Origin: Deltaproteobacteria bacterium
GTDB lineage: Bacteria; Desulfobacterota_C; Deferrisomatia; Deferrisomatales; JACRMM01
DNA: 21,206 nucleotides
Reading direction: 5' to 3'
NCBI GenBank assembly: GCA_016218905.1
Contig: JACRCS010000563.1
Span: 1 to 21,206 of the forward strand
Below, piece after piece: positions 670 to 19,518 of this stretch (position 1 is its first letter; each line of letters opens with the position of its first letter). The notes below the pieces were generated by a model that did not search any database, had not been told where the DNA came from, and saw nothing but the letters and a program-made list of their open reading frames with translations. The position numbers and the translations under genes were made by a program.

Positions 670-2532
670 TCATTTCACGTTTACGCGCACGGTCGCCCAG
701 TTCGACGCCGCTCCGGCCGAGTCGAGAACCCGGTACGTGAACACGTCGGTCCCGCGGAAGTTCTTCTTCGGCGTGTAGGTGACGACGCCGGTCGGCGCCG
801 CCGTAGCGGTGCCGCCCCGCGTGGGCGGAGTCACGATGGTGACGGAGCTTTGGTTGATGGTGCTTCCGGACGTCCGTCCGGTCGTACCGGCGGGGTCGTC
901 GGGATCGTAGTCGTTGGCGATCACGTCGACGACCACGGAACGGTTCTTGGGCGTGCTCGCGGAGTCGCCCACCGCGACCGGAGCGTCGTTGAGCGGCGCA
1001 ACGGCGATGGAGACCGTCGCGGGGTTTCCGTTCACCTGCCCGTCGTTGGCCTTGTAGGTGAAGGAGTCGGGACCGTTGAAGTTCGGGTTCGGCGTATAGG
1101 TGAAGGCGCCGTTCGGGCTCAGGGTAAGCGCGCCGTTGGCCGGCCCGCTCACCAGAACCGCGGCGAGGGAGTCGCCGGGGTCGGGGTCCGCGTCGTTTCC
1201 GAGAACCCCCGGGGCGGCCACCGTCAGGACGGCGTCCTCTGCGGCGGCGTACGCGTCGGGGTTGGTGGTGGGCGCCCCGTTGCCCACCACCGTGATGCTC
1301 ACCGTGGCGGAAGCGCTGCCGCCGGCATTGGTCGCCGCATACGTGAAGCCGTCGGTACCCGAGAAGCCCGCGTTGGGAGTGTACGTAAAGGATCCGTCGG
1401 CGTTCAGGGCGACGAGAGTTCCGTTCGCCGGCCCCGAGCCGGGGACCAGGGACGCCGTCAGGTTGGCCCCGGTGTCGTTTCCCAGGACCCCGGGGACTGG
1501 GACGGTGAGGTTCGTGTCCCGGTCTACCGCGTAGGCGTCCGGGTTCGCCACGGGAGCGGCCACCGTTCCGCCCACGGCGAGGGTGGTGCGCATGCCCCCG
1601 TTGTAGGCGCCCGCGCTGGTGAGGTGCAGGGACCGGTCATAGATCGTGTAGGCGCCCGGCAATTCGGGGGTCCACAGAACGTCGATCGTCTTTCCCGCCG
1701 GGAGGAGGACCGAGTACTGCTGCCTCGGGTAGGGGTATGGGTTCCCGTCCTCGGCCAGGACGCTCCAGTAGCCGCCCTCGAGCGCCGGGACGTGGGTCTT
1801 GAGGCCCGCGTTCAGGAGTCTGAGGAGGATCCTCCCGTCGGCCAAGAGCGGCGGGAACGTCCCTTGATCGCCGGGGAAGGACTGCCCGTTGACGAGGTAG
1901 TACTGCGGCTTGTAGCGGAGGGGCTTGGCCGGAGCGGGAGCCGCATTCAGCGTAGCGTCGAGCTCGCTGTAGAGGAGCACCACCTCCGCGTCGTAGGCTA
2001 CGCCCGGGTACGCCTGGCCCGCCGCCGCGTCCGCGGTCACCGCGCCATAGAGCCCCATGGGCACCTGCTTGGCCGGGTTCGTGCCGCTCTGGTAGAGGTA
2101 GGTGCCCGGCCTCAATCCAGTCCAGGTGTAGGTGCCGGCCGCCCCGGGCGCAGTCTCCGCCGTGAAGGCCCTCACGCGGGTCCTTCCCAGGAAGTCGGTG
2201 ACGGTCACGGGGGTCAACGTCGCCGGCTGCCCCGGGATCACCAGCGACACCGGCTCCGGCAGGTTGTTGGTCAGGTGGATCGTCAGCGTGGTATCGCCGG
2301 GCGGCACGACCAGCCGCGGGCCCGGTATGGTGACGATCCCATTGCCGGGACCGGCCGTGGTGTCGTCGGCGAAGCCCCAGACCTGGACGACCGTCGAATC
2401 GGGCATGGTCTTCGAGGACGCCGCTGCCCTCAGCTCATAGGTCGCGCCCGCCGACACGCCGGCCGTAAGCGCTAGAGCCGTGAGGAGCAGCGCCGAACCT
2501 CTCAGCCCCTTTTCAAGCACCGTGCGGTTCAT
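670..2532 (-). CDS. Secreted degenerate multicopper-oxidase-like protein with three C-terminal cadherin/VCBS-like repeats
   Basis: 620 residues from ATG 2532, preceded by AAGGAGGAAG. It has a signal peptide at about 1-29. Residues 45-320 follow the cupredoxin layout of protein B upstream: VWGFADDTTAGPGNG, IPGPRLVVPPGD, RPGTYLYQSGT, MGLYGAV and YYLVNGQSFPGD. Copper ligands are nearly absent. Only three His occur in that part (about 86, 247 and 303), and the YHSGT of protein B is YQSGT here. It is therefore unlikely to hold a trinuclear copper centre. Three tandem Ig-like repeats follow, at about 328-416, 422-513 and 517-620. Each has the NPDAYAV...VLGND...G(S/A)FTYTPN...F(S/N)G.D.FTY pattern of the cadherin-like/VCBS superfamily, which is typical of surface adhesion proteins. 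It starts 18 bases after the gene before it, in the same operon. A structural or surface-anchoring role is inferred. Confidence 0.8.
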   Translation of the reverse strand: MNRTVLEKGLRGSALLLTALALTAGVSAGATYELRAAASSKTMPDSTVVQVWGFADDTTAGPGNGIVTIPGPRLVVPPGDTTLTIHLTNNLPEPVSLVIPGQPATLTPVTVTDFLGRTRVRAFTAETAPGAAGTYTWTGLRPGTYLYQSGTNPAKQVPMGLYGAVTADAAAGQAYPGVAYDAEVVLLYSELDATLNAAPAPAKPLRYKPQYYLVNGQSFPGDQGTFPPLLADGRILLRLLNAGLKTHVPALEGGYWSVLAEDGNPYPYPRQQYSVLLPAGKTIDVLWTPELPGAYTIYDRSLHLTSAGAYNGGMRTTLAVGGTVAAPVANPDAYAVDRDTNLTVPVPGVLGNDTGANLTASLVPGSGPANGTLVALNADGSFTYTPNAGFSGTDGFTYAATNAGGSASATVSITVVGNGAPTTNPDAYAAAEDAVLTVAAPGVLGNDADPDPGDSLAAVLVSGPANGALTLSPNGAFTYTPNPNFNGPDSFTYKANDGQVNGNPATVSIAVAPLNDAPVAVGDSASTPKNRSVVVDVIANDYDPDDPAGTTGRTSGSTINQSSVTIVTPPTRGGTATAAPTGVVTYTPKKNFRGTDVFTYRVLDSAGAASNWATVRVNVK

Positions 2533-2550
2533 GGCTTCTTCCTCCTTCGC

Positions 2551-3912
2551 TCAGGGGATCGGCGCGCCGGGCGGCTCGAGGATGAGCATGGTCATCATGC
2601 CCCCGGGGAAGATGTTGTAGTTGGTCAGCTCCTTCTCCGCGTGGGAGTGCCACATGTAGGTGAAGCCGCCGTTGGGGTTGAGTCCTCCCTGGCCCGGCGG
2701 CAGGGAGCTGAGCGTCCCCAAGAAGGGACTTCCGCTCCAGAAGCCTCCGAACGTGAGGTCCTGCTGCTGCGGCAGGGTGACGGGCAGAGGTTTTCCGTGG
2801 TCGGGACAGTACTCTCCGGTCACGGGGTCGAAGCCCGGCGACGCCACGGTGCCGGGGGCGTTCACCGAGATTCCGTTGCAGGAGTGCTCGTGGTCCGGGC
2901 CGGTCCCGTACATGTCCCAACCCAGCTTCTCGCCCGTCCACTGGAAGATCGCGTCCACGGTCTCCCCCGGCACGGACTGAATGGTGAAGACCTCGTGGCT
3001 CAGGTCCAGGGCGCCGGGCAGGGTCTCCAACGGGCGGCCGTCGCGGGCGATCACCCGGGCGTGGTTGCCGTGGTGGTGGAAGGGGTGCAAGTCCCGTCCG
3101 GCCACCACGACGCGCATGAGCAGCCGTTCACCGGGATGCATCCTCGGCATGCAGTCGTACGGCTGGGTCGGGAGCCAGGCCGCCATGGCCGGCGCCATGG
3201 TGTCAGGGGCGTTTCGACCGTTCATGAACCAGTAGTTGGGGAAGTAGTCGGAGAGATAGTCGGTGGCTGCCAGAGCCGCGGGGCCCTGGGTCTCGACGAG
3301 TTCGTGGACGCGAGGGTCCATTTCGCTCAGGACAAAGAGGGTCTCGTGGGTATAGGCGGAACCCGGACTGCCGTAGGCCGTGGGCGCCATAGGGTCGAAG
3401 CCGGCGGGCCGGACGATGATGGCGCCGACGAGGCCCATCTCCACCTGCAACTCCGGACGGGTACCGCTGTGATAGAGGTAGGTACCCGGCTTGGCTGCCG
3501 TGAAGGTGTAGGTGACGCTGGGATCCGGGAAGGCGCCCGTGTAGGCAGGCACCTCCTGGGTGAGGAGCCCGCCGCTTCCGCCGGCGGCCGTTACCCGCTG
3601 CCCCGGAAAGACGAGGGAGACGGGCACAGGGAGCCGGTTTCTTAAGGTGACGCTGACCATGTCGCCCTGGTTGACGATGAACGTGGGTCCCGGGTATTGG
3701 GCGCGGCCCATGCCGGTGGCGCTCCCGTCGGCGTAGCCCCAGAAGTAGACGCTTCGGCCGTCGCCGGTGGTGATGTGGTCCGCTTTCGCCACCAAATCGA
3801 AGGCAGGCCCCGGAATGCCGTCGATCATGGCCTCTGCCCGGAACGCCCCGAAGGCGAGTAGCAGGGCCGCGAGGACGGACGGTCTCGCGATGCGAAGCAA
3901 ACTCGTGTTCAT
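2551..3912 (-). CDS. Secreted multicopper oxidase-like protein B (HPxHxHG motif present, type 1 Cys replaced by Ser)
   Basis: 453 residues from ATG 3912, with AGGAGG six bases upstream. It has a signal peptide at about 1-28. Cupredoxin motifs in order: YPGPTFIVNQGD (about 73-84), TYLYHSG (about 144-150), HPFHHHG (276-282), a His-rich stretch DHEHSCNG (about 340-347), and MWHSHAEKELTNYNIFPGGMM (about 420-440). HPFHHHG matches the HPxHxHG signature of the C-terminal domain of multicopper oxidases. The final signature is normally HCH followed by His and Met; here it is HSH, so the type 1 copper Cys is Ser423. The protein may bind type 2/3 copper but should lack a classical blue site of its own. 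It begins 22 bases after protein A, which carries the HCH motif. Electron transfer between the two, or a mixed assembly, is inference. Confidence 0.85.
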   Translation of the reverse strand: MNTSLLRIARPSVLAALLLAFGAFRAEAMIDGIPGPAFDLVAKADHITTGDGRSVYFWGYADGSATGMGRAQYPGPTFIVNQGDMVSVTLRNRLPVPVSLVFPGQRVTAAGGSGGLLTQEVPAYTGAFPDPSVTYTFTAAKPGTYLYHSGTRPELQVEMGLVGAIIVRPAGFDPMAPTAYGSPGSAYTHETLFVLSEMDPRVHELVETQGPAALAATDYLSDYFPNYWFMNGRNAPDTMAPAMAAWLPTQPYDCMPRMHPGERLLMRVVVAGRDLHPFHHHGNHARVIARDGRPLETLPGALDLSHEVFTIQSVPGETVDAIFQWTGEKLGWDMYGTGPDHEHSCNGISVNAPGTVASPGFDPVTGEYCPDHGKPLPVTLPQQQDLTFGGFWSGSPFLGTLSSLPPGQGGLNPNGGFTYMWHSHAEKELTNYNIFPGGMMTMLILEPPGAPIP

Positions 3913-3934
3913 TTGATCCTCCTGACCGTTTCTG

Positions 3935-5248
3935 TCACAGGACCCGAATCTCGGTCAGCATGCCGCCGAGGGCCTCCTGGCCGCCGAGGGTGGCGTCGTT
4001 TTCGCCGTTGTTCAGGTAGTTGAGGTTGCTCGTGTACAGGAAGTAGGTCGTGCCGGGAGCCGCCCCGGCCGGCACTTGCAGGAGCACGTCGGCCGACTCC
4101 CCGCCGCCCAGGGTCACAGAGCTCGTGGTGTAGTAGAGGTCCTTACCGAGGAGTGGACCGGGCCCGTCCGGGTCAGCCCCCCTCAGGAGCCGCGCGTTCC
4201 AGCCCACGACCTTCAGGGGGACGCCCAGGCTCTGGAGCGTGAAGAACCTCTGAATGCTCACGTTGGAGACCCGGAGCAGCACCCGCTGGCCTGCTGCCGC
4301 CGTCACGAGGGAACTCAGCTTCTGCGAGGGGTACCCCGTCGGATGCGAGTCCGTAGCGTTCATGAGCGCGCCGGTCTCGTCGGCCGGCGGGGGAAGGGGA
4401 GCCGGATTGACCGTGTCGGGATAGCCGCGACCGTTGATCATGGCGTAGTCGTCCCTCATGGCCGCGAAGGGAAGCGGCTGCACCGCCAGGTGCAGGTCGT
4501 GGAAGTTCGAATCGAAGGAGCTCAGTTGGACGGGGAAGTCGACGTCGTAGCGGGTGGAGCCGTCGCCGTCGTTGTAGGCGTAGCGGTAGCCCGGCTGGTG
4601 GACGAACCCGCCGGCGAGAACCGTTCCGGCAGGGAGCTTGTCCTGGGCCGGCCGGACGTAGAGGTTCCCGAGCATCCCCATCTGCATGTGCTCCGTGGCC
4701 TCCACGTGGCAGTGCCACAGATAGGTCCCCGGCTCGGCGACGTTGTAGTAGTAAGTGAAGGTCGAGCCCATGTTGATGACCATGGACGACTCGGGAACAC
4801 CGTCGAAAACGGCCGCTGCCTGCGGGAACCCGTGCCAGTGGATGCTGTGCGGGTCGAAGAGGTCGGGCCGCATCATCATGCCCACGTTGGTCAGGCTGAG
4901 GTAGAGCTCGTCCCCCTCGTCCGCGACGATCGTGGGCGCCGAGTAGTCGGCGGCGAGAAGCCCCGCCAGGACCCGCTCGTCGGGCGGGGTCGCGGGCTCG
5001 TCCGCCACTCCCGTGAGATCCATGAAGCTGAAGATGTACTGGAGGTGCCCGTCGGCCATGGTCACGAAGCCGTCCCCCGCGCCCACGTGCATGCACTTGA
5101 CGCCGGGCGGGACTGGGCCGTCCGGGATCGCGTCACCGTTCGCGTCGCCGGGGCACTGGACGGCTACCACCGCTCGAGACGGCTCCGTCCCGAGCACCCC
5201 TACCGCGGCGAGCAGAGGGAGAATCCGTAAGAGACTGCGGCAGTTCAT
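3935..5248 (-). CDS. Secreted multicopper oxidase-like protein A (IHWHG and HCH copper motifs)
   Basis: 437 residues from ATG 5248, with AAGGAGGAAACG directly upstream. It has a signal peptide at about 1-26. The first-domain copper motifs are intact: HSIHWHG at 134-140 and WHCHVEATEHMQMGM at 178-192. The latter supplies His179, Cys180, His187 and a Met (190 or 192) as a possible type 1 site, plus His181. The second half (about 230-437) has a cupredoxin-like outline (MINGRGYPDTVNP, then QRVLLRVSNVSIQRFFTLQSLG). It lacks the HPxHxHG and second HCH motifs of a full laccase; the place of HPxHxHG reads QRFFTLQ. The missing pair is partly present in protein B next door. Likely an extracytoplasmic oxidase of metal ions or phenolics; the substrate is not determinable. 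It follows the giant protein after 64 bases. Confidence 0.85.
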   Translation of the reverse strand: MNCRSLLRILPLLAAVGVLGTEPSRAVVAVQCPGDANGDAIPDGPVPPGVKCMHVGAGDGFVTMADGHLQYIFSFMDLTGVADEPATPPDERVLAGLLAADYSAPTIVADEGDELYLSLTNVGMMMRPDLFDPHSIHWHGFPQAAAVFDGVPESSMVINMGSTFTYYYNVAEPGTYLWHCHVEATEHMQMGMLGNLYVRPAQDKLPAGTVLAGGFVHQPGYRYAYNDGDGSTRYDVDFPVQLSSFDSNFHDLHLAVQPLPFAAMRDDYAMINGRGYPDTVNPAPLPPPADETGALMNATDSHPTGYPSQKLSSLVTAAAGQRVLLRVSNVSIQRFFTLQSLGVPLKVVGWNARLLRGADPDGPGPLLGKDLYYTTSSVTLGGGESADVLLQVPAGAAPGTTYFLYTSNLNYLNNGENDATLGGQEALGGMLTEIRVL

Positions 5249-5312
5249 CGTTTCCTCCTTCCCTGATCCGGCCCCGCCGGGCTCGTGGCCCGGCAGGACC
5301 GATCGGTTCTCG

Positions 5313-8300
5313 TCACGGGAGCTCGTCCGCCCCGATGTCGGGCCTCGTGCTCACCGGCGCCGGCCGGACCTGCCGATCGAGGTCCAGCCGCAGGTCGGGG
5401 AAGGCCGTCGCGCGGGTGTTGAAGGTCGCCACCGGCATGCCGTCGCGCCGGGTGAGGACGTGATAGTCGCCGTAGGGCTCGGGCGGGTCGACCGGGAGCC
5501 CGGTGAGCGGGTCGATCCGCAGGAGCGTCAGCGGTCCGTAGCGGGTGCGGATGAAGTTGCCCCCTTCGTCGAAGGCCGGCTGCACCTGGATGGCCGTCGT
5601 GATCTCGGGTTGGAGCACGGTCGAGCCCCGGTCGACGTTGACATACTCGTGCACGAAGTTCGGGTCCACGGAGACATTGCTCGGCGAATAACCCGCCGTG
5701 CTCGTGAGGATGCAGTGCTCCGGGCGGAGGAGCGGCGCGGGGGAGAGCCCCGTGCCGAGGACCGCCAGGTCGGAGTACGCGGGCGTATCCGGATCCGGCA
5801 GGAGCTGGTACGGCACCGGGGGATCCGCGTTCGGGTCGCCGAAGAAGTAGAAGCTCCGGTTGTGCCAGATGATGTTGTCTTCCAGGAACTGGGGGTTCGA
5901 GAAGACGCTGTAGCGCCTCACGGCCTGTGCGTTGCCGAAGGCGGACGCCAGGGCCGGGGTGTGGGCGCGGCTCACGATGCCCGCCGGCTGCGGGGTCGAC
6001 TGATTGGGACTACCCGGCGCGAAGGCCTCACCGGCCGTGGCCGTGCTGTCGTTGTTGGCGATGGTGTTGTGGAGGATGTTGCTCATCGCGGTGTCCTGGA
6101 GCGAGATCCCGCCTCCTGCCAGGGCCGCGGAGTTGTTGGCGATCACGTTGTTGAGGATGTCGACGTTGTACCAGCGGTCCGGCCGGTTGCGGGCCGCCCT
6201 CCCGGCCACGTCCTGGCCGTTGACCCGTTGGGTCCGGATGCCCCCGCCGTCGCCTGCGGCGGCCGCGTTGCCGAGAACGAGGTTGGAGAGGATCTTCACG
6301 TTGCCGGAGCCGGGGCTCAGGCTGGCCGCCCCGGTCAGCGCCAGGGGCGCTGCGCCTCCCACGAGGATGCCTCCGCCGTTCACCGTGATCCCCTGGTTGA
6401 AGGACTCGTTGAAGACGACGGTGTTGTAGGCGATGACTCCGTTGGGGCTGAGCCCCTCGTGGCCGATCCCGCCGCCTCCGCCCGCGCTGAAGTTGCCGCA
6501 GAGGAAGTTGCTCGTCACCTGATAGCCGTCGCACCCGGTGTAGAGCGACACGCCGCCGCCGACGCCGTTCAGGCCTGAGTTTTCGATTACCTGGTTATGG
6601 TGGATGTTCAGGTTGTCGTTGAAGCCGCTCTGGTAGTCGAGCTCCGGAGTCTCGACCGTCAGGTCGGCGTGGCCGACCCGGATGCCGCCGCCGAAGACGC
6701 CGTTGTTCCCGACGATCCGGTTGTTGGCGATCTCGAGCCGGTGGGCGTAGCCGTTAACGACGATCCCCCCGGCGTGGTCGGCACCGGTGATCGTGAGCCC
6801 GTCGATGCGGGCGTTCGATACCCCGCCGGTCCCGAACTGGCCCTCCTTCGGCAGGACGAGGATTCCCGGGCCCTCCTCGTTGAAGAGGAGCGCGGGCTCG
6901 ACGCCCCCGGCCGCGCCGGTCTCCTGGCCCGGGAGGAGGGTGACCGCCCCCGTCGCCACGAGGTTGCGGACCTTCTCGCGCCAGAAGGCGAGCTTCTCCG
7001 CCGGCACCTTGACGGCATTGATCACGGTGGAGCCGGTTCCCCACCCCTGCAGCCGCAGCGGTTTCCAAAGGACTACGAGCTCGTCGTAGGTGCCCGGCGC
7101 CACGGTGACGAGGCTCCCGGCGGGAGCCGCGTCGACGGCTTCCTGGATCTTGGAGTAGTTGCCTCCCGCCTGACTGACCACCACCGGCGCAGCGCCTCCC
7201 ACGGTGAGGGTCACGCCCACGGGCGTGGTCTTGCCGTTGTCGCCGCGGCTTACCATCACCTGGCCGGCGGTCACGCCCGCGGGGACCGTAGCCACGATGG
7301 TCGTGTCGGTCCAGGAGCCGACCGCGGCCCGGATACCGCCGACGGTGACCGTTCCCGTAGCAGCTCCGAAGCCGAAGTCCCGAGCGATGGTGATCCGGCA
7401 GGCCACCGGAGCGCCCGGAAGGGTCGGGTCGACGCCCGCGCACAGCGGATCGAGGTTGTTGAACGAAGGATTCGGGACCTGCGTCGGCCCCTGGGACGTG
7501 ATGGCGATCTGCTGGCCCGCCGCCGGTACCCACGGCCCAACCGGGGTCCCCGCCGCGTTGGAGACGCTGTGAATCATGGGCGTGCCCTCGCCGAACTCGC
7601 AGTCCAGCGGGAACTGCCCCGGCCCGGCGAAGGCTGCCACCGGAATGACCGGCGTGTCCAGGTACGTGGTGGTGCCGGGCATGTACTGGAAGGTGTAGCA
7701 GAACTGGCTGTACTGCCGGTTGAAGTTCGGGTCCGGGATGTAGCTGTCCGGATTGGCCGGATCGGGCATCACGGGCGTGTTGAGGCACACTGTGATCATG
7801 CCGGGCGACATGCCGCTCGGCTGCGGCAGGTTCGCCGAGTAGGTCGACGGAACGAGCGCGTTGTAGACGCCGTACTGGTCCGAGTACGTCCGGGCGATCT
7901 CCCGCCCCGTCCAGTCGCGGATCGAGATCGGCATCCACGGCGGCGCGTACTTTTCCCCAAAGTTGGGGGCCGCCGGGTCGAACTCGTTCTGGGTGTCGTC
8001 AAGGATGAACCCGTAGATATGCCCCGCGATGGGCGCGTGGGTGAAGAGGAAGAAGTCCGCGGCCGCGTTCTGCCCCTCGGCCAGGGCGACCTTCTTTCGG
8101 TCGCAGAGCGCGCGAGGCTGCCCGGCGGTGGCCGCCGGGACGCCCGGGAAGAGGCTCAGCTCCGGCGGGACCGTGTACCCCGGAGCCCCATCGACGTCCA
8201 CGTCGTCCCAGTTCACGCACGACGGAGGCAGGGCGAGAAGGCTCGGGACGCGATCCTCGCCGAAGTCGACGTTCTTGTCCTGGTTCTTCACGATCTCGTA

Positions 8301-10718
8301 CCCGGGAGGAGCCACCGCCTCGACGATGTAGGTGCCGGCCGGAAGGTAGCCGCCCGCCGCCTCCCCGAAGGCGTAGCCGCCGTCGAACACGGCGGGCCGC
8401 ACCTGGTTGAAGTTCCGCAGGCCGTCGTAGCAGTCCTTGGGGTAGAGGCCGAGGAATTGGAAGACCTCCCCCTGGCAACCGGCGGGAAGGCTGTCGTCCC
8501 AGCTGTCGGTGTGGGTGATCTCCACGGCGTCGCCGAGATCGAAGACGCCGTTGCCGTTCCGGTCAAGATCCTCGGCACCCTTGAGAGCCGTGCCGTCGGA
8601 CCAGCCCAGGGGATGGTTGTCCACGTCGGCCAGGTTCGGCGCGGTCGCCGCCGAGCCGAGAGCCAGGCAGGCGCTCGAGCCGGGCGTCAGGTCGGGAACG
8701 TCGATGACGCCGTCGGCGTTGCAGTCCCGATAGAGGTTCACCTGCACCCGCGGGATCCCGGGCTCCCACACCTCGGGCGCGCCGTCCTGCGCTTCGTCCT
8801 CGGCCCGGGTGGCGGAGTAGTAAACGACGCCCGAGATCCCGCCGTTCTCGGCCGGATCGAGGAGGGCGTTGCCGTTCCAGTCCTTGTCCCCCGGCCCGGG
8901 GAAGTCGCCCAGGGGAGGGTTGTCCTCGTCGGCGGGATGGTAGGCCGCCTTGCCCCACTCGAGGACGCTCGTCTGGCCGATGAAGCCCTGAAAGCCCATC
9001 ACGAGGGCGGGACCGGCGTACGTGGCGGCGAGGTTGTCCCCCCGGTTGGGATTGATCCGCGGGAGACCCGCGCTGCCGGCCGGACACTCGGGCACGCCCG
9101 CGTCGATATCGCTCTGGGTGCAAGACTGGGGTTGCGGGCTGAGCTGACCGCCCCAGGAGAGCGGATTCGCCGGATCGATCGGCCCTCCGTCGTCGACGGT
9201 GACCGTTACGCCCGTCGCCTTGAGCCGGGCGAAGTCCACCTCCGCCACCTGCCAGGCGAAGAAGGGGAACACCTGGTCGAACGGCACGAAGCCCGCGCCG
9301 TCCGTGGGCGCCGATTGATACATGGTGCCGTCGCGCCAGCGCAGGTTCACCGGCACCTCCGGGATGCCGGGCTCGCCGGAGTCGCGGAGGCCGTTCCGGT
9401 TGAGGTCGTTGAAGACGTGGTGCTCCAGGCGGGTGAACCATTGGAACACCGGAACGTCGCCGAGGTTCAGGTCGCTCGCCTCCACGGTGACTTGGTGGAA
9501 CGCGAAGATGAGGTCCAGGTTGTCGTCCCAGACGGCGAGCTGGTAGGTACCGGGCGGGACGTTGGGGATGGCGAACGTGCCGTCAGGATTGCACCGGGCC
9601 GCGTAGACGCCCCTTCCGGCGCCGGCGGCGCCCTGGTTCAGACCCACCCACGGGGTGGTGTGCACGAAAGGGCCTCCGTTATAGAAGGCGTAGTCCGGCG
9701 GCCTCGAGAGGTGGAGGTTCACGACCTGTCCCGTGACGGTGCTGCCCCCGGTGAGCACGGTCGCGTCGGCGAAGGGCTCCACGAAGCCCACGAACACGTG
9801 CCAGCCGGGAGGCCCGAACTCTTGGAAGAAGGCGGGCTCGTCGGCCTTGACCCAGGCGTCGATGACCTTGGTCCCCTCGATCGTGGACGTCTGCTGCCAG
9901 TTCGAACCCGGCGGAGGCACGGCCTGGATACCGTACTTTCCCGGCGCCAGGTGCTTGATCGTGGCCTCGCCGTTGGCGTCGGTGGTGATGATCCCCGTGC
10001 CCAACTGGGCGACCACCGGGGTCCCGTCCGGGTTGAAGCAGAACTCCGTCCCCGAGGCGCCGCACGTCTGGTTGTACGTCGTGCCCAGAGGATTGCCGAA
10101 GGCGTCCATCATCTGCATGCCCGCGGACATGCCGTATCGGCCTCCGCCGTCTTCCAGGAGGATCCGGAAACCTTCCAGCCCGCTCTCCTGGGGTGTGTCG
10201 GGGGCACCGTTGATGGGGAAGTTGTCCTCGAACACCAGGATCGTGATCTGGGCCGTGGGGATCGGCTGCTGATGCACGTACACCGCGACGGCCGCCTGCT
10301 GGGGCGCGATCTGGGCTCCGCCGATGGAGTAGCTCCCCGGCACCGTCGGCATCACCGAGACGTAGTAGTGCTTGGTGGGATCCAGGCAGAGGCCGGTGAC
10401 GTCGGGCCCGCACGCCGGCGGGAGGGTATTGCCGATACCCTGGGCCACGACCGGCATATAGCTCCGGTGGAACCCCACCGAGAGGGTATTCGCGTCCGGA
10501 ACCCCCGGGTTGACGTGGTAGGTGTTGTCCTCCTCCAGTGTCCAGCGGTAGTCCGCCACCTCGGCGGGGGTGCCGCCACCGGGGGGCACGCTCCTCACGC
10601 TCAGGCTCACGGCCTCGGCCTGCCCCCGAACTACCAGGGCGGCCAAGACGACGAGGACCGCCGTGACCCACGACGTTCCCCTCTTCCTTCGACGATCAGT
10701 TCCGGTTCGTGGTGCCAT
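5313..10718 (-). CDS. Giant secreted protein: SdrD-B-like domains, IPT/TIG domain and right-handed parallel beta-helix
   Basis: 1801 residues from ATG 10718, with AGGAGG seven bases upstream. A basic N-terminus and hydrophobic segment end in an AEA site (about 1-36). Prealbumin/SdrD-B-like beta sandwiches follow: about 240-266 (TTDANGEATIKHLAPGKY), 370-400 (PDGTFAIPNVPPGTYQLAV), 433-475 (VFNDLNRNGLRDSGEPGIP, the calcium-binding-like SdrD B signature), 610-680, 715-815 and 900-955. An IPT/TIG-like domain lies at about 1045-1173. A parallel beta-helix lies at about 1183-1620, beginning YSKIQEAVDAAPAGSLVTVAPGTY and carrying repeated turns such as ANNRIVGNNG, FGGGIRVGH and ILNNVIANNS. The C-terminus has RPDIGADELP, common at the end of bacterial beta-helix proteins. 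It is the first gene of the operon with three cupredoxin proteins, so a surface scaffold or mineral/ligand-binding partner is plausible but inferred. Confidence 0.85.
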   Translation of the reverse strand: MAPRTGTDRRRKRGTSWVTAVLVVLAALVVRGQAEAVSLSVRSVPPGGGTPAEVADYRWTLEEDNTYHVNPGVPDANTLSVGFHRSYMPVVAQGIGNTLPPACGPDVTGLCLDPTKHYYVSVMPTVPGSYSIGGAQIAPQQAAVAVYVHQQPIPTAQITILVFEDNFPINGAPDTPQESGLEGFRILLEDGGGRYGMSAGMQMMDAFGNPLGTTYNQTCGASGTEFCFNPDGTPVVAQLGTGIITTDANGEATIKHLAPGKYGIQAVPPPGSNWQQTSTIEGTKVIDAWVKADEPAFFQEFGPPGWHVFVGFVEPFADATVLTGGSTVTGQVVNLHLSRPPDYAFYNGGPFVHTTPWVGLNQGAAGAGRGVYAARCNPDGTFAIPNVPPGTYQLAVWDDNLDLIFAFHQVTVEASDLNLGDVPVFQWFTRLEHHVFNDLNRNGLRDSGEPGIPEVPVNLRWRDGTMYQSAPTDGAGFVPFDQVFPFFAWQVAEVDFARLKATGVTVTVDDGGPIDPANPLSWGGQLSPQPQSCTQSDIDAGVPECPAGSAGLPRINPNRGDNLAATYAGPALVMGFQGFIGQTSVLEWGKAAYHPADEDNPPLGDFPGPGDKDWNGNALLDPAENGGISGVVYYSATRAEDEAQDGAPEVWEPGIPRVQVNLYRDCNADGVIDVPDLTPGSSACLALGSAATAPNLADVDNHPLGWSDGTALKGAEDLDRNGNGVFDLGDAVEITHTDSWDDSLPAGCQGEVFQFLGLYPKDCYDGLRNFNQVRPAVFDGGYAFGEAAGGYLPAGTYIVEAVAPPGYEIVKNQDKNVDFGEDRVPSLLALPPSCVNWDDVDVDGAPGYTVPPELSLFPGVPAATAGQPRALCDRKKVALAEGQNAAADFFLFTHAPIAGHIYGFILDDTQNEFDPAAPNFGEKYAPPWMPISIRDWTGREIARTYSDQYGVYNALVPSTYSANLPQPSGMSPGMITVCLNTPVMPDPANPDSYIPDPNFNRQYSQFCYTFQYMPGTTTYLDTPVIPVAAFAGPGQFPLDCEFGEGTPMIHSVSNAAGTPVGPWVPAAGQQIAITSQGPTQVPNPSFNNLDPLCAGVDPTLPGAPVACRITIARDFGFGAATGTVTVGGIRAAVGSWTDTTIVATVPAGVTAGQVMVSRGDNGKTTPVGVTLTVGGAAPVVVSQAGGNYSKIQEAVDAAPAGSLVTVAPGTYDELVVLWKPLRLQGWGTGSTVINAVKVPAEKLAFWREKVRNLVATGAVTLLPGQETGAAGGVEPALLFNEEGPGILVLPKEGQFGTGGVSNARIDGLTITGADHAGGIVVNGYAHRLEIANNRIVGNNGVFGGGIRVGHADLTVETPELDYQSGFNDNLNIHHNQVIENSGLNGVGGGVSLYTGCDGYQVTSNFLCGNFSAGGGGGIGHEGLSPNGVIAYNTVVFNESFNQGITVNGGGILVGGAAPLALTGAASLSPGSGNVKILSNLVLGNAAAAGDGGGIRTQRVNGQDVAGRAARNRPDRWYNVDILNNVIANNSAALAGGGISLQDTAMSNILHNTIANNDSTATAGEAFAPGSPNQSTPQPAGIVSRAHTPALASAFGNAQAVRRYSVFSNPQFLEDNIIWHNRSFYFFGDPNADPPVPYQLLPDPDTPAYSDLAVLGTGLSPAPLLRPEHCILTSTAGYSPSNVSVDPNFVHEYVNVDRGSTVLQPEITTAIQVQPAFDEGGNFIRTRYGPLTLLRIDPLTGLPVDPPEPYGDYHVLTRRDGMPVATFNTRATAFPDLRLDLDRQVRPAPVSTRPDIGADELP

Positions 10719-11068: not shown

Positions 11069-12112
11069 TCAAGGCGGAATGCTCTTCTGTTCCAACCCAA
11101 TCAGGAATGAATTTCCTGTCATCGTTCTTGCAGCGACGAAGCACCGCGAGGCCTCCTCGTTCCCTCTCCGTTTCCCGTTCTCGGAACGAGCGAGCTCGAC
11201 CGCGCGGCTCACCGAAGCGGGGTTCATTCCGCAAATGCGTCCGAGCTGCGTGATGGAGAGACCGCCTTCCTCAAGGCTCCGCAACAAGAAGTGCCTGCGC
11301 ACACGAGAGACCGCGCGCTCGCGGGAAGCGCTCAGGATCCGCGCCTCCCCGATGCCGGACTCGGCGGTGACCTCCCTCAAGATCGCTTCCCAACCCCGCC
11401 GGGGCGTGTCGAGTCCGTTCTGTTCCGAAGCTCGCCGCACGGCCTCGACGAACTGCTCGCCACCGAGGATCCGTTCGTCCGCCCTCCCTCGCCCTGGTTC
11501 GAGCGGCCGGTACCCGTGCGGCTTGCCGGTCGCCGGTAGGTTCGTCTTTCGCCCCTGGCCACAGCCCTCGACGACGAACTCCCGATACCGGGCCACCGCT
11601 TCCTCCCGGTCGGGCGCGAACCGTCCCAGCACGGCCTCGATATCCTGCCACGGGACGGACCGGGCTCCCACGAGCGCTGCATGCCCGGACCAGGGATGCC
11701 GATCGAGTTCCTCGATCGACCGCACGGTATTCCTGCGCACCAGGTGCAGCGCCACGTACCGGACGAGGTCACAGAAGTACGGCTCCTCCTCGACCACCAC
11801 GCTTCGGTAACGGCTCTGGAAGACGTGCCCGGACCGTCCGTGGCGGAGGTTGTAGCTCACGGCGTGGCCCGTCATCAGTCGCCGCATGAGCCACGCCAGG
11901 CGTCGGTCTCCGGGCCTCAGCACGAGGTGGAACTGGTCGGGCAGCAGGCACCACGTATAGAGGCTGGCGCCGGCCGCCGTGACGAGTTCCCCGAGCCTCG
12001 CGACGAACTCCCCCCGGTCGTGATCGTCGCGAAAGATAGCCAGGCCCTCGATCCCTTGGGCCGTCACGTGCTGCAGCAGGTCTGGGCCGTCCAGACGGGG
12101 TCTTCTCGGCAT
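11069..12112 (-). CDS. REP-associated-type tyrosine (HUH/Y1) transposase with C-terminal helix-turn-helix
   Basis: 347 residues from ATG 12112, chosen because AGGAG lies seven bases upstream; a TTG ten codons earlier has no good site. The N-terminus MPRRPRLDGPDLLQHVTAQGI matches the usual opening of this transposase family (IS200-like Y1 fold). The family's HUH motif normally reads like NHxH. Here it reads LPDQFHLVL, giving Gln60 and His62. The Tyr helix is present as LVRYVALHLVRR (Tyr119), with SGHVFQSRYRS before it. The C-terminal part (about 280-320) has SRERAVSRVRRHFLLRSLEEGGLSITQLGRICGMNPASVSRAVELA, a helix-turn-helix with DnaA-C-like spacing. These proteins mobilise or process hairpin sequences as single strands. 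The first metal-ligand His is replaced, so activity is uncertain. Otherwise it is a full-length, uninterrupted member of the family. Confidence 0.85.
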   Translation of the reverse strand: MPRRPRLDGPDLLQHVTAQGIEGLAIFRDDHDRGEFVARLGELVTAAGASLYTWCLLPDQFHLVLRPGDRRLAWLMRRLMTGHAVSYNLRHGRSGHVFQSRYRSVVVEEEPYFCDLVRYVALHLVRRNTVRSIEELDRHPWSGHAALVGARSVPWQDIEAVLGRFAPDREEAVARYREFVVEGCGQGRKTNLPATGKPHGYRPLEPGRGRADERILGGEQFVEAVRRASEQNGLDTPRRGWEAILREVTAESGIGEARILSASRERAVSRVRRHFLLRSLEEGGLSITQLGRICGMNPASVSRAVELARSENGKRRGNEEASRCFVAARTMTGNSFLIGLEQKSIPP

Positions 12113-12451
12113 CCCGTCGCTCCTGAAAGGCAAGAGGGTCAACAGTGTCCCGATGTCTCCTTTTGACTACACGCTACAGCGGGACCCAGAGCCTTCAATG
12201 GGGCGGAACTCGGATACTCGTGCCGGTTTCTTGCCCTTCCGCGTGTAGGCGTTCTCCTATGGCGTCCAGGTCCGGTCCGAATCGGTCGGCGGATGACAGG
12301 GCGGGGCAGCGATCATCATTGAGCGCGCGGAGGATGCGATGGACTCCCGACTCCGCAAGGAAGCGGGACCGAAATCCCGCAATTGCGGATAGTGAGCTAC
12401 CCGACTCGCGTGCCGCTGGGTGCAGGGGCTAGACCATGAGGGCGACGAGGG
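12113..12451. other. Intergenic region upstream of the transposase, no gene recognised
   Basis: About 340 bases between the transposase start and the oxidoreductase remnant. A plus-strand frame of about 95 codons (12145-12432) is open, but its Arg/Ser-rich product resembles nothing and it has no convincing ribosome binding site, so I do not call it. The sequence GTGTCCCGATGTCTCC at about 12145-12160 resembles GTGTC/TGTCTCC motifs on the other side of the transposase (10815-10834). A small hairpin GCGGGA-6-TCCCGC lies at 12363-12380. Confidence 0.4.
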
Positions 12452-15151: not shown

Positions 15152-15220
15152 ACCTCGTTGGGCCTGTGTTGACAGGCAGATAGAATGCGTTTGCCGACAC
15201 AATTCCATCACCAACGAGGT
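15152..15220 (+). promoter_or_regulatory. 10-bp inverted repeat that can sequester the transposase ribosome binding site in read-through RNA
   Basis: ACCTCGTTGG (15152-15161) and CCAACGAGGT (15211-15220) are exact inverted copies 49 bases apart. The right arm contains GAGGT of the Shine-Dalgarno sequence GAGGTGA (15216-15222), seven bases before ATG 15230. RNA starting outside the element would contain both arms. RNA from the internal promoter (start near 15193) would lack the left arm. Confidence 0.55.
15158..15186 (+). promoter_or_regulatory. Candidate sigma-70 promoter of the IS1380 transposase
   Basis: TTGGGC (15158-15163) as -35, a 17-base spacer, and TAGAAT (15181-15186) as -10. The predicted start is near 15193. 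The -35 overlaps the left arm of the inverted repeat. A TTGACA at 15169-15174 is a better -35 by sequence but has no -10 at the right distance. Confidence 0.45.
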
Positions 15221-15229
15221 GAGAGAACG

Positions 15230-16744
15230 ATGCCACAAGGAGTGCTCGCGTTCCAGTACGAAGAGGAGAAGCAGGCGAGCGGTCTGACCGGACTCGGGGG
15301 CCTGCCCACGTACTTGGATCTGATCCATGCAAGTGGTTTGCCGAAGGCGATCTGCCACCGGCTTACGATCCGCTCGAAGGGGCAGGGGTGGTCGGATACA
15401 GGGATGATCGTATCGCTGATCGCCTTGAACGTGGCGGGCGGAGACTGCGTGGAAGATCTCAACGTCCTGGAAGCCGACGAGGGGCTGAGCCGAATGATGC
15501 TTCGGTTCCAGTTCCAGGGGATGAGCCGCAAAGAGCGGCGGCAAGAGGAGCGGCGCTGGCGTAAGGAGAAGAAGCGTGGGGTAGCGTCGCCCTCGGCGGC
15601 TTTTCGCTACTTGAGCGAGTTCCATGACGAGGAGCAGGAGAAAAAACGCCGTCCCCACGAAGCATTCATCCCGGCGGAAAACGCAGGGCTCAAGGGTTTG
15701 TGGCAGGTGCATAAGGATTTCATCGGGTTCGTTCAGCGTCGGCGGCCGGAGTCGGTCGCAACGTTGGACATGGATGCGACGCTGGTAGAGACGAGCAAGG
15801 AAGAGGCGCTTTGGAGCTACAAGGGGTTCAAGGCGTATCAGCCGCTCAACGTCTACTGGCACGAGCAGGACCTGGTGGTCTACTCCCAGTTCCGCGACGG
15901 CAACGTCAATTGTGGGCATCGTCAGACCGAGGTATTCCAACGGGCGATGGAACAGCTGCCGGAGGGGGTGAAGGAAGTCTACGCCCGCACAGATACTCAG
16001 GGTTATGAGCAGGCATTTCTGCAGTACCTGGCGGAAGGCAAGAACGAGCGGTTCGGCGTCATTGCGTTTGCGGTGGGAGCCGACGTGACGGAGGCGTTTC
16101 GCAAGGCGGTGGCTGAAGTCAAAGAGGAGGAATGGAACCCACTGGATGATCGAGGCCAGCAGTGGGCGGAAGTCTGCTACGTCCCGAACTGGGTGGGGCA
16201 CCAGAAACCCAGGGAGGAGGGACCGAAGTACCGGTTCTTGGCGGTCCGAGAGCCCCTAGCCGAACCCGAGTTGCCTGGGCTGGAGAAGAAGCAGGAAGAG
16301 CTGCCGTTCCCGACGATGGAATTCGGGGGGAAGGGGCGCTACAAACTTTTCGGCGTCGTCACGAACCGGGACCTGCCCGGAGCCGAACTGATCCGATGGC
16401 ACCGGCAGCGCTGCGGCGCGAGCGAAATGGCCCACTCGGTGATGAAGGAAGATCTGGCGGGAGGCAAGCTGCCTTCCAAGCTCTTTGGGGCGAACGCCGC
16501 CTGGTGGGCGATCATGCTGCTGGCCTACAACCTGAACAGTGCCATGAAGCGGCTGGTGCTCGGAGGCCATTGGGTGAGCAAGCGGCTCAAGGCGATTCGA
16601 TACGCGCTCATCCATGTCGCTGCACGGGTTCTCGAGAGTGGGCGCCAGTTGATCGTGCGCCTCGCCGGAGGGCATCCCTCCAACGAACTGCTGTGGAGGG
16701 CGAGAGCTCGCATCCTCGAACTGATGCAGCCGGCAACCGGGTAG
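15230..16744 (+). CDS. IS1380-family transposase (DDE type)
   Basis: 504 residues. ATG 15230 is chosen because GAGGTGA lies seven bases upstream; an in-frame ATG at 15185 lies at the -10 and would start before the mapped signals. The product opens MPQGVLAFQYEEEKQASGLTG. Its early region GMIVSLIALNVAGGDCVEDLNVLE is typical of the family. Candidate catalytic residues are the Asp in TLDMDATLVETSKEEALWSYKG (about 180-200), the Asp in EVYARTDTQGYE, and the Glu in RHRQRCGASEMAHSVMKEDL (the family's Tyr/Arg-Glu-Lys-type segment). The end is YNLNSAMKRLVLG, then RYALIHVAARV. It looks complete and undisrupted, so the element may still be active. It is the only gene inside the inverted repeats. Confidence 0.9.
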   Translation: MPQGVLAFQYEEEKQASGLTGLGGLPTYLDLIHASGLPKAICHRLTIRSKGQGWSDTGMIVSLIALNVAGGDCVEDLNVLEADEGLSRMMLRFQFQGMSRKERRQEERRWRKEKKRGVASPSAAFRYLSEFHDEEQEKKRRPHEAFIPAENAGLKGLWQVHKDFIGFVQRRRPESVATLDMDATLVETSKEEALWSYKGFKAYQPLNVYWHEQDLVVYSQFRDGNVNCGHRQTEVFQRAMEQLPEGVKEVYARTDTQGYEQAFLQYLAEGKNERFGVIAFAVGADVTEAFRKAVAEVKEEEWNPLDDRGQQWAEVCYVPNWVGHQKPREEGPKYRFLAVREPLAEPELPGLEKKQEELPFPTMEFGGKGRYKLFGVVTNRDLPGAELIRWHRQRCGASEMAHSVMKEDLAGGKLPSKLFGANAAWWAIMLLAYNLNSAMKRLVLGGHWVSKRLKAIRYALIHVAARVLESGRQLIVRLAGGHPSNELLWRARARILELMQPATG

Positions 16745-17986: not shown

Positions 17987-19327
17987 TCAGCGCAGCGCTC
18001 TTCTCGCCGCGGTCTGGACCGGGTCCCAGACAGGGGAGAAGGGGGGCGCGTAGCTCAGGTCCATGTCCACCAGGTCCTGGGCAGTGAGACCGAGGGTGAC
18101 TGCGGTGGCCAGGACGTCGATCCGCTTCGCGGCGCCCTCGGTCCCGACGATCTGGCCTCCTGCGAGCCTTCCGCTCCGCTTCTCCCACAGGAGCTTCACC
18201 GTGATCTTCCCCGAGCCCGGGAAGTAGTGCGCTCGGGTCCGGCTCTCGATCCGCGCGGTCTCGAACTCCCATCCGAGGTCCCGGAGCTCCTTTTCCTGAA
18301 GCCCCGTGCGGGCTACCTCGAGGTCACAGAGCTTGCTCACCGCGGTCCCGACGGCGCCGGGAAAGGTCGCGTCCCCGCCGCCGAGGTTGATCCCCGCGAC
18401 GCGCCCCTGCCTGTTGGCCACGGTTCCCAGGGCCACGTGGAAGGGCTTCCGGCTCACGCGGTGGAACGTTTCCACGCAGTCGCCGGCGGCCCAGATCCCT
18501 TCCACTTCGGTCCGCATCCGGTCGTCGACCCGGATGCCGCCGCTCTCTCCCACGGGGACCTTCGCCCTCTCAGCCAGGACGGCGTTCGGGCGGACGCCCA
18601 GGCCCAGCACCACCACGTCCGCGGCAAGGGTCCGATTCTCGGTGACCACGGCTCGCGCTTTCCCCGCTTCGGACTCGACCGCTTTCAGACCCTCTTGGAG
18701 GTAGAGCTCCACCCCGAGCCGCTCCAGCGCCTCGGATACCAGAACCGCCATGTCCGGATCGAGCGTGCCCATCACCTGGGGTGCCTGGTCCACCAGCGAG
18801 ACGTGGAGCCCTCGTCGGCGAAACGCCTCCGCCATCTCGAGCCCGATGTAGCCTCCGCCCACGATGACGGCACGGGACGGGCGATCGCGCTCCAGGGCGT
18901 CAAAGAGCTCTGCGGCCTCGGAGAGCGTGTTGACCCCGTACACCCCCGGACCGTCGAGCCCGGGGAGGTCCGGCCGGAGAGGAACGGCGCCGGTCGCGAT
19001 CAGGAGCTGATCGAAAGCCTCCCAGCGCTCCTTGTCGCTTCGGACCCGAACCCGCTGCCTTCCGCGGTCGATCTCGGTGACTTCGTGGGACACCCGGGCA
19101 TCGATGTCGTACTTCGCCCGGAACGTCTCAGGCGTGCGGACAACCAGGTCCTCCCTCTCGTCGACCAGACCGCCGACGTAGTAGGGAATGCCTCAGGCCG
19201 AGTAGGACGTGTAGCGGCCCTTCTCGAACGCGACGATCTCGAGTTCCGGTCTCCTGCGGCGCGCCTGGGAGGCCGCGCTCATGCCCGCGGCGTCTCCACC
19301 GATGATCACCAGCCGCTCTCGCGCCAT
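17987..19327 (-). CDS. Selenocysteine-containing CoA-disulfide reductase / NADH oxidase-type flavoprotein (TGA at codon 45 read as Sec)
   Basis: The gene starts at ATG 19327, with GGGAGG eight bases upstream, and ends with TGA at 17987-17989: 446 residues with one internal in-frame TGA at 19195-19193. The N-terminus has the FAD-binding motif LVIIGGDAAGMSAAS (about 6-20). The TGA is codon 45 in RYTSYSA-U-GIPYYVGG. CoA-disulfide reductases and NADH oxidases of the pyridine nucleotide-disulfide family carry their single redox Cys at exactly this place. A second Rossmann motif AVIVGGGYIGLEMAEAF is at about 153-169, AAGDC of the FAD site at 280-284, and the dimer-domain YAPPFSPVWDP at 426-436, typical of CoA-disulfide reductase. 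Both sides of the TGA are fully conserved, and the TGA is followed by a SECIS-like hairpin. Likely reaction: NAD(P)H-dependent reduction of CoA disulfide, polysulfide or peroxide/O2. A recent nonsense mutation is the alternative. Confidence 0.87.
19159..19178 (-). promoter_or_regulatory. Bacterial SECIS-like hairpin for UGA recoding
   Basis: On the minus strand, starting 15 bases after the TGA, CGUCGGC pairs with GUCGACG (five Watson-Crick pairs, one G-U wobble, then C-G). The loop is GGUCUG. The loop begins 22 bases after the UGA. The E. coli fdhF SECIS has an AGGUCU loop, with GGUCU starting about 19 bases after its UGA. Bacterial SECIS elements need loop guanines and a UGA-to-loop distance of roughly 16-37 bases; both conditions are met. 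Confidence 0.75.
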
Positions 19328-19518
19328 CTATACGGCCTCCCTTCTGCCTCTTCGGGTTTGCGAAACGTACGCAGGCCTGCGCCGACAAAGTGAGCAGACG
19401 GCACATCCCTCCCCCGGCGGGAAGAGCTTAGCCGCGCGGGGAGCAATGAAAAGACCTGAAGGCGCAGACGTGCTACCCCGAGGCGGCCGCGAGCCGGGCG
19501 CTCGGCCGGCCGGTCGCT

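What the first reader, a model, noticed from the sequence alone, without database searches (positions are those of the whole stretch)
17987..19327. Selenocysteine CoA-disulfide reductase/NADH oxidase hidden behind an in-frame TGA
Seen: a single TGA at codon 45 interrupts an otherwise complete flavoprotein, with family motifs intact on both sides (SYSA before, GIPYYVGG after). Known: this codon is the redox-active Cys (TGC/TGT) in CoA-disulfide reductases and NADH oxidases, and Sec versions of NADH-oxidase-like proteins have, as I recall, been reported in selenoproteome surveys. Inferred: the TGA is read as Sec, giving a more reactive, lower-pKa catalytic residue. Routine annotation would start the gene near 19093 and lose the FAD motif and active site.
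Basis: partly seen in the sequence, partly recalled or inferred. Interest (0 to 1): 0.93.

Follow-up and report, generated by a model that had tools for sequence, protein, structure and literature searches.

The report
Selenocysteine flavoenzyme hidden behind a TGA
A bacterial flavoenzyme gene has a TGA "stop" codon exactly where its relatives have their catalytic cysteine, followed by an RNA hairpin that most TGA-bearing relatives share and most cysteine-bearing ones lack, so the TGA is very likely read as selenocysteine; the selenoprotein family was already known, and this is a strongly supported new member.

Summary
On the minus strand (17987-19327) one TGA (19193-19195, codon 45) interrupts a complete flavoprotein at the catalytic Cys column. 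Evidence: (1) a TGA pattern scan found 63 genome loci with homologues carrying TGA at that codon; broader genome draws gave the same TGA. (2) The hairpin after the TGA fits the published bacterial SECIS model; it is conserved in TGA forms and mostly missing from Cys forms. (3) The three most similar proteins known (89-90% identical) all start after this codon. (4) Most TGA genomes tested carry selB and tRNA-Sec, but Cys-form genomes carry selB too. The host genome is not held, so its own Sec machinery is untested. The family was listed as a selenoprotein in 2006 ("NADH oxidase", now "CoA-disulfide reductase, UGxP"), so this is a new member of a known kind. The substrate is unproven: the curated CoA-disulfide reductase cut-off is not met. 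Less expected: TGA forms occur under seven NCBI phylum names, and Sec and Cys have switched repeatedly.

The parts
17987..19327 (-). Predicted Sec-containing FAD/NAD(P)H-dependent pyridine nucleotide-disulfide oxidoreductase, CoA-disulfide reductase-like; 446 aa when read through codon 45
19193..19195 (-). in-frame TGA, codon 45, predicted selenocysteine at the catalytic Cys column
19159..19178 (-). core of the predicted bacterial SECIS element: 7-bp stem CGUCGGC/GUCGACG with 6-nt loop GGUCUG, loop starting after 21 nt from the UGA
19152..19187 (-). extended hairpin with lower stem as folded by ViennaRNA (-21.3 kcal/mol for the 45 nt from the TGA)
19336..19343 (-). Shine-Dalgarno-like AAGGGAGG, 8 nt before the ATG
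19325..19327 (-). start codon ATG, directly preceded in frame by TAG
17987..19093 (-). truncated 368-aa ORF (GTG start) found by ordinary ORF listing; lacks the FAD motif and active site

Best explanation
The gene at 17987-19327 (minus) encodes a single-redox-residue flavin disulfide reductase of the CoA-disulfide reductase/NADH oxidase type whose codon 45 is TGA, which is very likely read as selenocysteine, predicted to be directed by the hairpin at 19159-19178. Shown: the TGA sits on the catalytic Cys column; TGA recurs at that codon in many genomes; the hairpin fits the published bacterial SECIS rules and goes with TGA. Inferred: SelB with Sec-tRNA(Sec) binds the hairpin and decodes UGA; NAD(P)H then reduces FAD, FAD reduces a selenenyl-sulfide formed between Sec45 and CoA or a CoA-bound (per)sulfide, and the selenolate attacks the next di-, per- or polysulfide. 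The substrate is not established.
For: Pattern scan of genome contigs: 77 stretches, 63 with a homologue (blastp E 1e-3 or better; 52 near full length), TGA at query residue 45 without a gap in 62 of 63; 14 show no homology. Draws not chosen by TGA (their centres G009, G003, G001 were TGA genomes): 22 of 395 genomes had a strong match, 17 with one TGA, 5 without a stop (10 of the 17 new), the 17 TGA all at codon 45 and the 5 others TGC or TGT; 45 of 195: 16 TGA, 1 TAA, 28 none (4 of the 16 new); 7 of 350: 2 TGA, 5 none (neither new). In 120 loci plus the window codon 45 is TGA 95, TGC 23, TGT 3 (63 loci chosen by the TGA pattern). All five bSECIS constraints met in 61 of 74 distinct TGA sequences, window included, against 4 of 26 Cys; stability over synonymous recodings mean z -2.0 against -0.28, Mann-Whitney p 2e-10; 94.8% of stem cells paired and 32 doubly changed cells (shuffled mean 12.7, 0 of 500 as high), against 61.5% in Cys forms, which give no consensus fold. 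The three most identical homologues start after the TGA; the other 117 listed are 430 aa or longer. selB over cut-off in 42 of 50 TGA genomes and 10 of 10 more.
Against: No whole genome is held for the window, so its own selA/B/C/D are untested. selB does not discriminate: Cys-form genomes have it too (5 of 5; 32 of 33 genomes without an internal TGA). bSECIS geometry without the energy limit is loose: 73 of 74 TGA but also 18 of 26 Cys sequences meet it (best of four fold windows). For the window alone the synonymous test is borderline (z -1.91, p 0.05). Two covariation measures (pairs changed on both sides, further pair types) do not exceed shuffles, and the Cys set also shows some covariation (score 0.212 against 0.155, 7 of 500). 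The sequences are related, so shuffle counts overstate independence. In 8 of 50 TGA genomes selB was not over the cut-off; tRNA-Sec missed its cut-off in 3 of 50 and in G106, a TGA genome (1 of 15). No reads and no protein data were seen.
Confidence: 0.95

Rival explanations
1. The TGA is a sequencing or assembly error for TGC/TGT in an ordinary Cys enzyme.
For: One contig without a held genome, no reads seen; Cys is the listed residue in 116 of 120 homologues.
Against: The three most identical homologues are all annotated from after this codon, the hairpin typical of TGA forms is present, and the same TGA recurs in 63 genome loci.
Confidence: 0.02
2. Pseudogene: the gene is decaying and TGA is a nonsense mutation.
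For: An in-frame stop is what a decaying gene would show.
Against: No other stop or frameshift in 446 codons, domains complete; similarity on both sides of the stop; the stop falls on the one catalytic codon, as in relatives. The one non-TGA stop met in the survey (TAA in G857) falls at residue 39, not 45.
Confidence: 0.02
3. The organism reads TGA as Trp or Gly genome-wide (codes 4 or 25).
For: P0066, a relative, shows Trp at this column.
Against: 8 of the 10 main genes of the window end in TGA, this one included. P0066 lies beside a TGA form, L140, in the FastTree, so its Trp probably comes from a gene caller using another code.
Confidence: 0.005
4. The upstream 44 codons and the 368-aa ORF make two separate proteins, or only the short ORF is used.
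For: A GTG at 19093 opens a 368-aa frame.
Against: The short form lacks the FAD motif and the active site, and residues 1-44 are at least as conserved as the rest.
Confidence: 0.01

Closest known systems
Selenoprotein family 'NADH oxidase' / 'FAD-dependent oxidoreductase (CoA-disulfide reductase)', COG0446/TIGR03385, motif UGxP, example WP_011365774.1 (tables of PMC9312934 and PMC13188914); PMC1794560 names Geobacter metallireducens as the holder
   Same: Sec in place of the catalytic Cys; U-G-I-P fits UGxP; Cys homologues common. A bSECIS after the UGA is the general bacterial rule.
   Different: The window is at most about 65% identical over full length to the other TGA forms found here and groups with P0002, P0003 and P0015 in a clade of its own (P0002 and P0003). 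WP_011365774.1 itself was not fetched, so the direct identity is unknown.
Cys-type CoA-disulfide reductases / NADH oxidases of known structure (3cgb, 6ruz; also 4fx9, 3kd9, 5l1n)
   Same: Aligned over nearly the whole length; same active-site column and conserved C-terminal SYAPP..PVWDP region in the alignments shown for 6ruz and 3cgb.
   Different: Residue 45 is encoded by TGA here; these have Cys (seen for 6ruz and 3cgb only).
NADH-dependent persulfide reductases (Npsr; that 6pfz, 3nt6 and 3icr belong here is recalled)
   Same: Same FAD/NAD core; passages of PMC7969121 describe an active-site Cys next to FAD and a CoA that carries the sulfur.
   Different: No rhodanese domain here: the protein is 446 aa and Pfam shows none.

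Membership tests
Sec-type FAD-dependent oxidoreductase (CoA-disulfide reductase) selenoprotein family | In-frame TGA aligned to the conserved catalytic Cys, with Cys homologues | tested here: met
Sec-type FAD-dependent oxidoreductase (CoA-disulfide reductase) selenoprotein family | UGxP motif (table of PMC13188914) | tested here: met
   U45-G46-I47-P48; the motif is not strict, some TGA forms have UA or US
Sec-type FAD-dependent oxidoreductase (CoA-disulfide reductase) selenoprotein family | bSECIS: 3-9 nt loop, 4-16 bp upper stem, G in the first two loop positions, 16-37 nt spacing, energy at most -7.5 kcal/mol (PMC13188914) | tested here: met
   loop GGUCUG, 7-bp core stem, spacing 21 nt, -18.4 kcal/mol
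[quoted passage not shown]
   63 loci besides the window
Sec-type FAD-dependent oxidoreductase (CoA-disulfide reductase) selenoprotein family | Sec machinery in the same genome | not testable with these tools
   no genome held for the window; tested only in genomes of relatives
CoA-disulfide reductase equivalog TIGR03385 | Curated score cut-off 578.8 bits | tested here: not met
   456.3 bits; NF007123 also below, 405.5 against 458
CoA-disulfide reductase equivalog TIGR03385 | NAD(P)H-dependent reduction of CoA disulfide | not testable with these tools
   needs an assay
Npsr (CoADR with rhodanese domain) | C-terminal rhodanese domain | tested here: not met
Pyridine nucleotide-disulfide oxidoreductase superfamily | Pyr_redox_2 plus Pyr_redox_dim domains over gathering score | tested here: met

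The most novel reading that the evidence does not exclude
Selenocysteine is the ancestral state of this branch of flavin disulfide reductases across many anaerobic phyla; Cys forms arose from it repeatedly, some still carrying a fossil SECIS (L135), and most Sec members are hidden as truncated or mistranslated genes, so one of the widespread selenoenzymes of anaerobes has been counted as a rarity.
Probability: 0.4. Interest if true: 0.55.

Novelty: new member of a known kind. Interest (0 to 1): 0.4.

Why it matters
Ordinary gene calling removes the FAD motif and the active residue of this enzyme. A family entered with one sequence each in two surveys whose passages were read (PMC1794560, PMC2398784) turns out to have 63 TGA loci in one scan, under several phylum names, with a hairpin that largely separates TGA from Cys forms. 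Repeated Sec/Cys switching with SECIS kept or decayed makes the family a good test case for why selenium is kept or dropped.

Tried and rejected
Sec machinery in the host: no genome held. Rfam scan of the window at gathering scores: no match. tRNA scan of the window: none. Same TGA pattern in viral contigs: 0. Placing the host: among the few named homologues of its DUF1329 and MFS proteins are 'Deltaproteobacteria bacterium' and a Deferrisomatales bacterium, and for the MFS also other phyla; the 12 genomes in the class of G330 (best DUF1329 match, 67%) had no match to the flavoenzyme at 1e-100. The host stays unplaced; 'Deltaproteobacteria-like' is a guess. selB as a discriminator was rejected because genomes with Cys forms have it too. 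tRNA-Sec at the gathering score was rejected as a clean marker because 5 of 14 control genomes pass it; in the listing 44 of the 50 genomes score 67 bits or more. One clade for all TGA rows was rejected by an AU test (p 8e-7; the group was not named before a tree had been seen). Structure prediction was not run: homology to solved structures was judged enough.

Full report
WHAT IS THERE. On the minus strand, 19327 to 17987, a frame starts at ATG just after an in-frame TAG, with AAGGGAGG 8 nt before the ATG, and runs 446 residues with one internal TGA at codon 45 (19195..19193) and a terminal TGA. Ordinary ORF listing finds only 368 aa from GTG 19093. The read-through protein matches Pfam Pyr_redox_2 across the TGA (217 bits) and Pyr_redox_dim after it, and TIGR03385 CoA-disulfide reductase along its length at 456 bits, under the curated 578.8. 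Its best PDB relatives are 6ruz (called NADH oxidase) and 3cgb; both alignments shown have Cys at the TGA column.

IS IT CHANCE OR ERROR? Of the 120 homologues listed (7999 scored), 108 have Cys-Gly and 8 Cys-Ser at this site, P0066 has Trp, and 3 start after it. Those three, P0002, P0003 and P0015, are the most identical ones (89-90%; the rest 66% or less). P0003 has exactly the 368 aa of the window's own truncated ORF. Eight of the ten main genes in the window stop at TGA, so TGA is not a general sense codon here. Residues 1-44 are 72% and residues 46-446 63% identical to 117 full-length homologues on average: both sides look kept as one protein.

THE SAME TGA ELSEWHERE. A degenerate DNA pattern around the active site with TGA at the Cys codon matched 77 stretches in a collection of one genome for each of 84,980 species and none in viral contigs. 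Sixty-three of the 77 hold a homologue (52 near full length, the rest cut or interrupted; identity 33-67%), 62 with TGA at residue 45 without a gap and one (L053) with a one-residue shift; the other 14 show no homology and are taken as chance. NCBI's phylum names for TGA rows include Thermodesulfobacteriota, Chloroflexota, Thermomicrobiota, Actinomycetota, Synergistota, Bacillota and Candidatus Eiseniibacteriota ('Myxococcota' for 'Deltaproteobacteria bacterium' records I hold unreliable). Draws not chosen by TGA, though centred on TGA genomes, agree; 22 of 395 genomes of one phylum matched at 1e-130, 17 with one TGA (7 of these genomes were already known from the pattern), 5 without a stop; one search shows TGA at codon 45 in the 17 and TGC or TGT in the 5. 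(195 genomes of one class): 45 matches, 16 with TGA (12 already known), 1 with TAA, 28 with none (one of these, G887, is cut by the contig end before codon 45). (350 genomes of the phylum of G001): 7 matches, 2 with TGA (both already known). The single TAA (G857) lies at residue 39 with a Cys codon at 45. In 120 loci and the window codon 45 is TGA 95, TGC 23, TGT 3 (63 of these loci were chosen by the pattern).

THE HAIRPIN. The 45 nt from the TGA fold to -21.3 kcal/mol, z -2.6; 50 nt z -3.5. The core stem CGUCGGC/GUCGACG has loop GGUCUG after 21 nt of spacing from the UGA. Passages of PMC13188914 give the bSECIS rules: loop 3-9 nt, upper stem 4-16 bp, G in the first two loop positions, spacing 16-37 nt, energy at most -7.5. 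The window meets all. So do 61 of 74 distinct TGA sequences (window included) but 4 of 26 Cys sequences; without the energy limit it is 73 of 74 and 18 of 26, so geometry alone is loose (best of four fold windows). Against synonymous recodings the TGA hairpins are more stable (mean z -2.0; 45 of 74 at p 0.05 or less) and the Cys ones mostly are not (mean z -0.28; 2 of 26); Mann-Whitney p 2e-10; the window alone is z -1.91, p 0.05. On 64 of the 74 (10 divergent ones left out; 61 distinct rows) 94.8% of stem cells pair, and two pairs show compensatory changes (18-37 CG to UA, 19-36 GC to AU), 32 cells against 12.7 in shuffles; the number of such pairs and of further pair types does not exceed shuffles. 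The Cys set pairs 61.5%, with a covariation score reached by 7 of 500 shuffles, and has no consensus fold. The 64 TGA sequences also fix third codon positions (C21, C24) that vary in Cys forms. L135, a TGC form, keeps the six inner base pairs and the commonest loop of the TGA forms, though it misses the energy limit: a likely fossil. The sequences are related, so shuffle counts are not probabilities.

MACHINERY. No genome is held for the window. In genomes of TGA loci, selB is over its cut-off in 42 of 50 (controls 2 of 14; 13 further loci not given) and 10 of 10 more. tRNA-Sec passes in 47 of 50 (controls 5 of 14, so the gathering score is lenient; 44 of 50 reach 67 bits or more) and in 14 of 15 genomes, the miss being G106, a TGA genome. 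This meets a necessary condition for most, but Cys-form genomes also carry selB: 5 of 5, and 32 of 33 genomes without an internal TGA. selB therefore does not separate the two forms; the hairpin largely does.

HISTORY. A FastTree of 119 rows needs 15 Sec/Cys changes, 6 forced by starred branches, with warnings about long branches. IQ-TREE on 45 chosen rows needs 5 changes, and the AU test rejects one clade of all TGA rows (p 8e-7). There the window, P0002 and P0003 form one clade, sister to 15 Cys rows (96/90). Direction is not decided without a root. The same hairpin register in most lineages and the likely fossil in L135 favour Sec ancestry with repeated loss; parallel gain is not excluded.

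LIKELY WORKING. From passages of PMC6026696 and PMC7969121: in Cys relatives one Cys forms a mixed disulfide with bound CoA, is reduced by NAD(P)H in a flavoenzyme, and per-, poly- or disulfides are reduced; oxidase activity with NADH occurs in some. By inference Sec45 does the same as a selenolate. There is no C-terminal rhodanese domain. The true substrate is unknown.

KNOWN OR NEW. PMC1794560 (passages) lists a selenoprotein 'NADH oxidase', one sequence, under Geobacter metallireducens; PMC2398784 (passages) one in GOS; PMC9312934 and PMC13188914 (passages) list it as CoA-disulfide reductase, in the latter with TIGR03385 and UGxP. Searches of the held library showed no experimental study of the Sec form among the titles and abstract starts listed; subscription papers are mostly not held. 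The window is a new member of that kind. What the passages read here do not show is its breadth and its frequent Sec/Cys switching.

Noticed in passing
P0066 (451 aa, jgi metagenome): Trp at the catalytic Cys column (TSFSAWGIPY); pairs with the TGA form L140 in the FastTree (100). Probably a TGA translated as Trp by a gene caller using another code: a second way in which such selenoproteins may be misannotated.
   Followed up: partly
L135 (G822), 1633-1677: A TGC (Cys) form that keeps the hairpin's six inner base pairs and the commonest loop of TGA forms: likely fossil SECIS after a Sec-to-Cys switch.
   Followed up: partly
L012, L070, L066, L071, L008, L045, L030, L053: Divergent TGA forms (Chloroflexota, Synergistota, Bacillota and others by title) whose predicted hairpins lie at about the same place but have quite different letters.
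   Followed up: no
G857 (L143): The only non-TGA internal stop met: TAA at residue 39 of a Cys form; private error or pseudogene.
   Followed up: yes
window 17987-19093: The window's own truncated ORF is not among the 120 hits listed, although its DUF1329 and MFS proteins are listed at 100%, so the gene may have been missed altogether in the underlying gene calls.
   Followed up: no
window 670-10718: Run of four minus-strand genes: three with multicopper oxidase domains (Cu-oxidase_3; the first also with bacterial Ig/cadherin-like repeats) and an 1801-aa protein with an SdrD_B-like domain (Pfam).
   Followed up: partly
window 11069-12142 and 15185-16744: REP-associated tyrosine transposase-like ORF (weak, 34.8 bits against cut-off 80) and an IS1380 family transposase (210 bits, over cut-off 180).
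   Followed up: no
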